From Sphingobacteriales bacterium (GTDB taxonomy: Bacteria; Bacteroidota; Bacteroidia; AKYH767-A; OLB10), in assembly GCA_021299095.1 (NCBI GenBank), contig JAJTFW010000008.1:1-45241 (forward strand): a DNA stretch of 45,241 nt. Direction: 5' to 3'. Position 1 is the first letter of the stretch; each line of letters opens with the position of its first letter. The notes beneath the pieces are model-generated. The model saw nothing but the letters and a program-made list of their open reading frames with translations. It did no database searches and was not told where the DNA came from. The translations under genes were made by a program, and so were the position numbers. Positions 11,263-11,605 of this stretch are shown piece after piece.

Positions 11263-11514
11263 AATGATGTCCACATTGTCCTGAAACCCTGTATTTCAGG
11301 CGTGGTTGAAAGAGCATCAATCCAAACATGCAGTAGAATAATACCCGGAGAGGTGTCCGACAGTGCCCTGAAGTCCTGTACTTCAGGGGTGGTTGAAGGA
11401 GCACTTATCCAAAGCAGTAGAATTATTCCCGGAGAGGTGTCCGACAGTGCCTTGAAGTCTTGTACTTCAGGGGTGGTTGAAGGAGCACTTATCCAAACCA
11501 GTAGAATTATTCCC
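11263..11514 (+). repeat. Three 84-nt tandem units built from the 5' half of tRNA-Ser
   Basis: Units lie at 11263-11346 (degenerate), 11347-11430 and 11431-11514, and run directly into the tRNA. The two intact units consist of tRNA-Ser nucleotides 1-14 (GGAGAGGTGTCCGA), a 28-nt insert, tRNA nucleotides 15-30 (GTGGTTGAAGGAGCAC), and a 26-nt spacer ending ATTATTCCC. The insert forms a 9-bp hairpin (CCCTGAAGT, loop CCTGT, ACTTCAGGG) placed where the D-loop would be. The second unit keeps the stem with a G-U pair and the degenerate unit keeps a 7-bp version with one compensatory change, so the hairpin looks maintained. None of the units contains an anticodon or tRNA 3' half. Confidence 0.85.
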
Positions 11515-11605
11515 GGAGAGGTGTCCGAGTGGTTGAAGGAGCACGCCTGGAAAGTGTGTATAGGTCAAAAGCTTATCGCGGGTTCGAATCCCGCCCTCTC
11601 CGCCA
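11515..11605 (+). tRNA. tRNA-Ser (anticodon GGA)
   Basis: Class II tRNA: acceptor stem GGAGAGG (11515-11521) pairs with CCTCTCC (11595-11601), D-arm TCC...GGA, anticodon stem CACGC/GTGTG with loop CTGGAAA and anticodon GGA at 11549-11551, a long variable arm, and T-arm GCGGG TTCGAAT CCCGC. The discriminator G is followed by an encoded CCA (11603-11605). A terminator hairpin starts 12 nt later. The gene is flanked by tandem copies of its own 5' half upstream and a direct duplication of its own 3' end downstream. Confidence 0.96.

What the first reader, a model, noticed from the sequence alone, without database searches (positions are those of the whole stretch)
11263..11602. tRNA-Ser preceded by tandem repeats made of its own 5' half, each with a hairpin inserted in the D-loop position
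Two exact-period 84-nt units and one decayed unit carry tRNA nucleotides 1-14 and 15-30, split by a 28-nt insert that folds into a 9-bp stem (CCCTGAAGT/ACTTCAGGG). Variants between units keep the stem through a G-U pair and one compensatory change, which suggests RNA-level constraint. Similarity to the tRNA increases toward the gene. The units could be tRNA-like decoys in the precursor, processing signals, or the remains of a small hairpin element that inserted into a duplicated tRNA fragment and was then amplified. I know of no named element of this form.
Basis: partly seen in the sequence, partly recalled or inferred. Interest (0 to 1): 0.68.

Follow-up and report, generated by a model that had tools for sequence, protein, structure and literature searches.

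The report
tRNA-nesting nuclease element, remnant array
The odd repeats before this serine tRNA gene are left-over copies of the gene's own front end, each split by a small hairpin, and the same arrangement with a DNA-cutting (GIY-YIG) enzyme gene inside sits beside tRNA genes across the Bacteroidota, which points to a widespread, apparently undescribed family of selfish elements that nest in tRNA genes and rebuild them.

Summary
In detail: tRNA-Ser(GGA) at 11515-11605 is preceded by three 84-86-nt units (11261-11514). Each carries tRNA nt 1-14 and 15-30 split by a 28-nt hairpin insert; the oldest unit is decayed. In a second Bacteroidota genome (L083) the same tRNA is split at the same position (14|15) by an unrelated hairpin, with a GIY-YIG nuclease gene between the split copy and the intact tRNA. 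A congener of the window's genome (L119) alternates units with and without such a gene. A distinct clade of about 80-aa GIY-YIG proteins is tRNA-bound: of 30 best-per-genome loci across Bacteroidota, 26 lie within 600 nt of a tRNA, all on its strand; 25 of 28 loci with a tRNA in view also hold partial tRNA copies, 21 with a hairpin at the break. I read the window array as an ORF-less remnant of this element, which invades a loop of a tRNA gene, probably by nuclease-triggered repair, and carries a replacement end that rebuilds the tRNA. The nuclease gene is absent from the window's genome. Cleavage and movement are inferred, not shown. I found no description of the family; phage SegB is the nearest known enzyme.

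The parts
11240..11247 (+). Bacteroidota-type -7 promoter box TATCTTTG, the only one in the 400 nt before the tRNA; now 267 nt from the tRNA but 13 nt from unit 0
   Evidence: box-to-tRNA distance mostly 11-17 nt in relatives where a box is found
11261..11346 (+). unit 0: decayed displaced tRNA 5' end (11261-11274), hairpin 11280-11300, decayed tRNA 15-30 (11302-11317), spacer
11347..11430 (+). unit 1: tRNA 1-14 (11347-11360), 28-nt insert with 9-bp hairpin (11361-11388), tRNA 15-30 (11389-11404), spacer
11431..11514 (+). unit 2: tRNA 1-14 (11431-11444), insert with hairpin (11445-11472), tRNA 15-30 (11473-11488), spacer
11515..11605 (+). intact tRNA-Ser(GGA) with encoded CCA
11604..11724 (.). 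large imperfect palindrome after the tRNA, terminator-like (arms CAAGCAAAAACCAATGC / GCATTGGTTTTTGCTTG)
11757..11858 (+). 3' tail repeat: second copy of the tRNA 3' end (nt 73-91, 11757-11775) and of the following terminator region, 92% identical; same kind of repeat in congeners G001, G003 and in L083

Best explanation
The array is an ORF-less remnant of a tRNA-nesting GIY-YIG element. An element of this family breaks a tRNA gene inside one of its loops, here the D-loop between nt 14 and 15. After repair the old front of the gene (promoter plus nt 1-14) is left upstream, capped by a hairpin, and the element supplies a new nt 1-14, so the tRNA downstream is whole again. Repeating this at the rebuilt gene pushes older units outward and makes a tandem array whose oldest unit is furthest away and most decayed. 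In complete relatives the unit also holds a gene for an 80-90-aa GIY-YIG nuclease with I-TevI-type catalytic residues. The likely motor is cleavage of the intact tRNA gene by that nuclease, with repair copied from an occupied locus (homing); the hairpin at the break would make split copies uncuttable. Shown: the anatomy, the nuclease-bearing counterparts at the same tRNA position and in the same genus, the family-wide link to tRNA genes, purifying selection on the nuclease. Inferred: cleavage, homing, protection by the hairpin, and that the window's units arose this way.
For: L083: same tRNA, same split position 14|15, unrelated hairpin, then a GIY-YIG ORF, a copied leader and the intact tRNA. 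L119 in the same genus alternates ORF-less and nuclease-bearing units; L122 and L107 also combine ORF-less arrays with a nuclease gene. Small GIY-YIG genes of one clade lie beside tRNAs: 30/30 same strand in relatives, 11/12 against 0/18 in the unselected subset, 26/30 within 600 nt and 26/26 same strand in a phylum-wide replication, with partial tRNA copies in 25/28 and hairpins at their ends in 21/28, reversed control 1. 84/156 fragment ends abut a hairpin against 10% at random. UvrC control loci 1/19. Unit 0 lies 13 nt from the promoter box, as a tRNA does in relatives. Congeners G002 and G003 lack the 5' array. Nuclease under purifying selection, catalytic residues invariant, tRNA species clustered on the nuclease tree. 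Phage SegB, also GIY-YIG, cuts inside tRNA genes and produces tandem tRNA+segB repeats (PMC13096335).
Against: The window's genome holds no gene of this nuclease clade, so the link rests on architecture. No cleavage or movement was tested. The rebuilt tRNA should still be a target, and its escape is unexplained. Only one other genome has the exact 14|15 split in tRNA-Ser(GGA). Some breaks lie at arm boundaries rather than in loops (L119 at 10|11).
Confidence: 0.72

Rival explanations
1. Plain tandem duplication of the tRNA 5' end by replication slippage or unequal crossing-over, with one small palindrome that happened to land in the D-loop of one copy before amplification; no nuclease element was ever involved here.
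For: The own genome has no nuclease gene of the clade; units 1 and 2 are 95% identical, as after recent recombination.
Against: The same split position with another hairpin and a nuclease gene in L083; nuclease and ORF-less units in one array in the same genus; hairpins at 84/156 breaks. Later copy-number change by recombination remains possible and is compatible with the main reading.
Confidence: 0.15
2. The units are functional RNA: tRNA-like decoys or processing or attenuation signals in the tRNA precursor, kept by selection on the stem.
For: The array lies downstream of the only -7 box and so is probably transcribed; stems are kept through a G-U and one compensatory change; the leader folds better than shuffles, z -2.7.
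Against: No conservation of hairpin sequence, position, side or number between loci; congeners do without; no T-run after the hairpins, so not intrinsic terminators; the same split copies occur downstream of tRNAs and beside nuclease genes.
Confidence: 0.06
3. Remnants of an integrase-type element (phage, ICE) at a tRNA attachment site.
For: Such elements also duplicate part of a tRNA and rebuild it (established knowledge).
Against: No integrase among the flanking genes inspected: ordinary metabolic and secreted-protein genes; the repeated part is the 5' side with a hairpin at the break; counterparts carry only a GIY-YIG gene.
Confidence: 0.02
4. Assembly artefact of a metagenome-type assembly.
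For: The genome is in 93 contigs and reads were not available.
Against: Units differ from each other and independent assemblies show the same architecture.
Confidence: 0.03

Closest known systems
SegB, free-standing GIY-YIG homing endonuclease of T4/T6-type phages (PMC13096335)
   Same: GIY-YIG nuclease gene beside tRNA genes; cuts within tRNA genes; leads to tandem repeats of tRNA plus nuclease gene; its motif RAWTSGAAC matches the complement of the T-loop box (my comparison)
   Different: Phage-borne; no hairpin-split tRNA copies are mentioned in the parts read; here chromosomal, same-strand, with displaced tRNA ends capped by hairpins and the tRNA rebuilt
I-TevI-type intron-encoded GIY-YIG homing endonucleases
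   Same: Catalytic domain and invariant residues; weak profile match to I-TevI structures
   Different: No intron and no added DNA-binding domain; the element spares its target by rebuilding it, not by splicing
tRNA-integrating elements with tyrosine integrases (phages, ICEs; own knowledge)
   Same: Insert in tRNA genes and restore them with a carried part
   Different: No integrase, tiny size, hairpin at one end, tandem re-insertion
rtT / tyrT repeats of E. coli (own knowledge)
   Same: Tandem repeats downstream of a tRNA that include its last 19 bp; comparable to the window's 3' tail repeat (170-nt spacing)
   Different: Concerns only the 3' side; the 5' array with split D-loop has no counterpart there
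Rickettsia palindromic elements and mitochondrial double-hairpin elements (own knowledge)
   Same: Short palindromes inserted into genes and RNA loops; double hairpins also occur here (L119, L103)
   Different: Those are dispersed families of related sequence; here hairpins are mostly local to a locus, differ between loci and sit in tRNA copies

Membership tests
tRNA-nesting GIY-YIG element (as described here) | partial same-strand tRNA copy split at a loop, with a hairpin at the break, next to the intact tRNA | tested here: met
tRNA-nesting GIY-YIG element (as described here) | displaced end keeps the ancestral promoter distance | tested here: met
   13 nt, relatives mostly 11-17
tRNA-nesting GIY-YIG element (as described here) | GIY-YIG ORF in at least one unit | tested here: not met
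   no ORF in the units; none of this clade in the own genome. Hence a remnant or ORF-less derivative, not a complete member
free-standing GIY-YIG homing endonuclease system (SegB type) | GIY-YIG catalytic residues in the relatives' protein | tested here: met
   Y6 Y17 G19 R27 H31 E63 invariant; Pfam PF01541
free-standing GIY-YIG homing endonuclease system (SegB type) | nuclease cuts the tRNA gene and transfer depends on it | not testable with these tools
   needs cleavage and homing assays
integrase-type tRNA-integrating element | integrase gene in the element or beside it | tested here: not met
   flanking ORFs are metabolic or secreted-protein genes; counterparts carry GIY-YIG only
rtT / tyrT tail repeat | downstream repeat of the tRNA 3' end with the following region | tested here: met
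   holds for 11757-11858 only, not for the 5' array; no rtT match in Rfam at gathering score
dispersed palindromic element (RPE-like, MITE) | related copies dispersed in the genome | tested here: not met
   hairpin pattern found only in this array in the own genome

The most novel reading that the evidence does not exclude
A phylum-wide family of minimal selfish elements, one small GIY-YIG gene or none, that lives by cutting loops of essential tRNA genes, rebuilds each gene with a carried end and armours every left-over copy with a hairpin, so that one element both attacks and safeguards an essential gene. Different lineages specialise on different tRNA species, and miniature ORF-less units such as those in the window spread on nucleases acting in trans.
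Probability: 0.4. Interest if true: 0.88.

Novelty: new variant of a known kind. Interest (0 to 1): 0.76.

Why it matters
tRNA genes are favourite landing sites of mobile DNA, but the well-known routes need an integrase. Here a bare 80-90-aa nuclease domain seems enough to colonise tRNA genes throughout a phylum without destroying them, in many genomes in several copies. That would explain a large class of unassigned small GIY-YIG genes and of tRNA-fragment repeats, and it offers compact, naturally tRNA-gene-specific nucleases. It also makes directly testable how a homing nuclease avoids killing a cell whose target is an essential gene.

Tried and rejected
Dispersed REP/MITE-like hairpin: searched in the own genome and 60 relatives, a family of it exists nowhere. 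Rfam: only tRNAs at gathering score. Plasmid records: only the tRNA itself matches. Viral-contig scan for the split D-loop: one chance hit without a tRNA. L085 and L086 from the genome scan are leaders that happen to hold GTGTCCGA, and L084 and L087 have no tRNA; none is an element. A decayed 5' fragment upstream of tRNA-Ser(GGA) in G001 looked plausible by eye but was not significant and is not used. A resemblance of the hairpin to the tRNA's own anticodon arm was noticed by eye and not tested. TCCGCC..GGCGGA hairpins of G012 and G028 occur a few times outside the tRNA loci read here, so some palindromes are shared between loci. Literature: nine full-text searches found no description, and the GIY-YIG superfamily survey PMC1564403 does not mention tRNA-gene neighbours in the passages found; subscription papers could not be searched. 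Selection bias: part of the first batch of GIY-YIG loci was chosen by me with tRNA proximity in mind; the figures I rely on are the automatically chosen subset (11/12 against 0/18) and the phylum replication (26/30). No structure prediction was run, because Pfam and the active-site residues already identify the domain.

Full report
WHAT IS THERE. The window comes from a Bacteroidota genome held in 93 contigs (G000, 96% complete). tRNA-Ser(GGA) lies at 11515-11605. Upstream, 11261-11514 consists of three head-to-tail units of 86, 84 and 84 nt. Each holds tRNA nt 1-14, a 28-nt insert with a hairpin, tRNA nt 15-30 and a spacer of about 26 nt. Units 1 and 2 are 95% identical and their tRNA parts are letter-perfect; unit 0 is decayed but aligns over its full length. 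The inserts of units 1 and 2 have 9-bp stems (z -4.3 and -3.0). The only Bacteroidota-type -7 box (TATCTTTG) in the 400 nt before the tRNA is at 11240-11247. It ends 13 nt before unit 0; in relatives where a box is found near this tRNA the distance to nt 1 is mostly 11-17 nt. So unit 0 sits where the tRNA itself once began; the tRNA now starts 267 nt from the box.

NOT A DISPERSED REPEAT. The hairpin pattern occurs only in this array in the own genome, and no relative shows a family of it. Among the tRNAs of the own genome, leaving aside cross-matches among clustered tRNAs, only this one and tRNA-Arg(ACG) have exact tRNA fragments of 11 nt or more in 900-nt flanks; reversed tRNAs give none.

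THE KEY RELATIVE. A scan of 84,980 species genomes for a tRNA-Ser D-loop split by 14-44 nt gave five hits, one of them a true counterpart (the others are chance). In L083, from a Bacteroidota MAG (RYN_297), tRNA-Ser(GGA) is preceded by tRNA 1-14, a 22-nt insert with a 7-bp hairpin of unrelated sequence, tRNA 15-29, and then the ATG of an 81-aa protein with a GIY-YIG nuclease domain (Pfam PF01541, E 4.8e-14). After it come a copy of the same 30-nt leader and the intact tRNA. Same tRNA, same split position, different hairpin, plus a nuclease gene. L083 and the window also share a downstream repeat of the tRNA 3' end.

THE FAMILY. I then looked at GIY-YIG genes in 60 relatives and read the surroundings of 70 small ones. 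Thirty have a tRNA within 600 nt, always on the same strand; 19 UvrC loci, carrying the same domain in a repair gene, gave one tRNA within 1.5 kb. On a protein tree the small genes fall into two sides: 27 with no tRNA nearby, and 43 of which 32 have one. Of the remaining 11, eight have tRNA fragments near the gene, several at contig ends; in the control side a few single 13-14-nt matches occur, as chance gives. Because I picked part of this set by hand, the fair figure is the automatically chosen subset: 11 of 12 members of the tRNA clade beside a tRNA or its fragments, 0 of 18 of the other side beside a tRNA (Fisher p 2e-7). A profile of the tRNA clade (A1) was then run on 118 Bacteroidota genomes: 70 have it, with up to 21 copies, often in tandem. 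Of the 30 best-per-genome loci, 26 have a tRNA within 600 nt, 26 of 26 on the same strand. Of the 28 loci with a tRNA in view, 25 also have partial tRNA copies and 21 have a hairpin right at the end of such a copy; the reversed-tRNA control gave 1. The window's own genome has none of these genes.

ANATOMY ACROSS THE FAMILY. The partial copies are mostly broken at loops: D-loop (window, L083, L151, L155), anticodon loop (L115, L153), T-loop (L103, L105, L150, L151, L155), or a whole arm is replaced by a hairpin (L106, L131, L156). Some breaks lie at arm boundaries (L119 at 10|11), so loops are a strong tendency, not a rule. Overall 84 of 156 fragment ends abut a hairpin of at least 6 bp within 3 nt, against 10% at random places (ends within one locus are not independent). 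Elements occur on the 5' side, as here, and on the 3' side as a mirror image: intact tRNA, terminator, nuclease gene, hairpin, displaced tRNA 3' end (L103, L105). ORF-less units like the window's stand beside nuclease-bearing ones: L119 (same genus, both kinds alternating), L122 (same genus, split tRNA-Val tails and one nuclease gene), L107 (four 85-nt units before the tRNA, nuclease after it). In congeners G002 and G003 tRNA-Ser(GGA) has no 5' array, so the array is probably younger than the genus. tRNA-Ser(TGA) in genus g4 shows an intact nuclease gene (L103, L125) or only a truncated start of it (L213).

THE NUCLEASE. Y6, Y17, G19, R27, H31 and E63 are invariant in 20 diverse members, matching the I-TevI-type active site (own knowledge). 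The nearest solved sequences are UPF0213 proteins, SLX1 and, weakly, I-TevI. Tandem copies and congeneric pairs differ mainly at silent sites (pN/pS about 0.2 in L251; dN 0.04 against dS 0.39 for L103/L125), so function is kept. The tRNA species attached to a nuclease is clustered on the tree (18 changes, shuffled mean 22.8, none of 300 as low), as expected if lineages are adapted to particular tRNAs; the tree rests on 98 columns and many forks are open.

HOW IT PROBABLY WORKS. The anatomy is what repair of a cut tRNA gene from an occupied copy would leave. The cut falls in a loop; the old end stays behind, joined to the hairpin; the element brings a new end that joins the remaining part into a whole tRNA. 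Each further round at the rebuilt gene pushes older units away, giving the age gradient seen here. The best precedent is SegB, a phage GIY-YIG enzyme that cuts inside tRNA genes, prefers the motif RAWTSGAAC, and generates tandem tRNA+segB repeats (PMC13096335). That motif fits the complement of the tRNA T-loop box (my comparison), one of the places where hairpins sit here. Hairpins in the left-over copies would abolish recognition and also break up homology with the functional gene. These last points, and cleavage itself, are inference. Not explained: why the rebuilt tRNA is not cut again, and what spread the window's units without a nuclease gene in the genome (a lost copy, a nuclease in trans, or ordinary recombination).

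VERDICT. The RNA-decoy and processing readings are unsupported; the 'amplified hairpin element' reading is right in outline. The array is best read as an ORF-less remnant of a family of tRNA-nesting GIY-YIG elements that is widespread in Bacteroidota and that I could not find described. It looks like the product of a homing element. It is not filed as a complete member of that family, because the nuclease gene is missing here, nor as a proven homing system, because cleavage and transfer were not tested.

Noticed in passing
window 11587-11858; L069, L066, L083:1017: Tandem repeats of the tRNA 3' end plus terminator region downstream of tRNA-Ser(GGA) in the window, G001, G003 and L083; between GGGAT and AATCCC there is often a hairpin, like a T-loop split by a palindrome.
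   Followed up: partly
G000:C67:33250-33349 (L049), G000:C42:1397-1453 (L051): The post-tRNA palindrome region of the window is 79-81% similar to sequence directly after tRNA-Ser(TGA) and tRNA-Ser(GCT) in the same genome, a shared tRNA terminator module.
   Followed up: no
L251 (G202:C34:6000-11500): Tandem array of at least eight GIY-YIG units with a period of about 365 nt, each followed by a hairpin-split tRNA 3' end; no intact tRNA in the stretch read.
   Followed up: partly
L148 (G012:C49), L151, L155: tRNA-Met and tRNA-Arg(CCT) spare copies with hairpins in more than one loop of the same copy.
   Followed up: partly
L179 (G000:C32, tRNA-Arg(ACG)): Only other tRNA of the own genome with an isolated tail repeat: nt 59-75 recur 146 nt downstream.
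   Followed up: no
window 11218-11652: A 144-aa open frame runs through the array and the tRNA because 84 is a multiple of three; it reads tRNA sequence and is most likely spurious.
   Followed up: no
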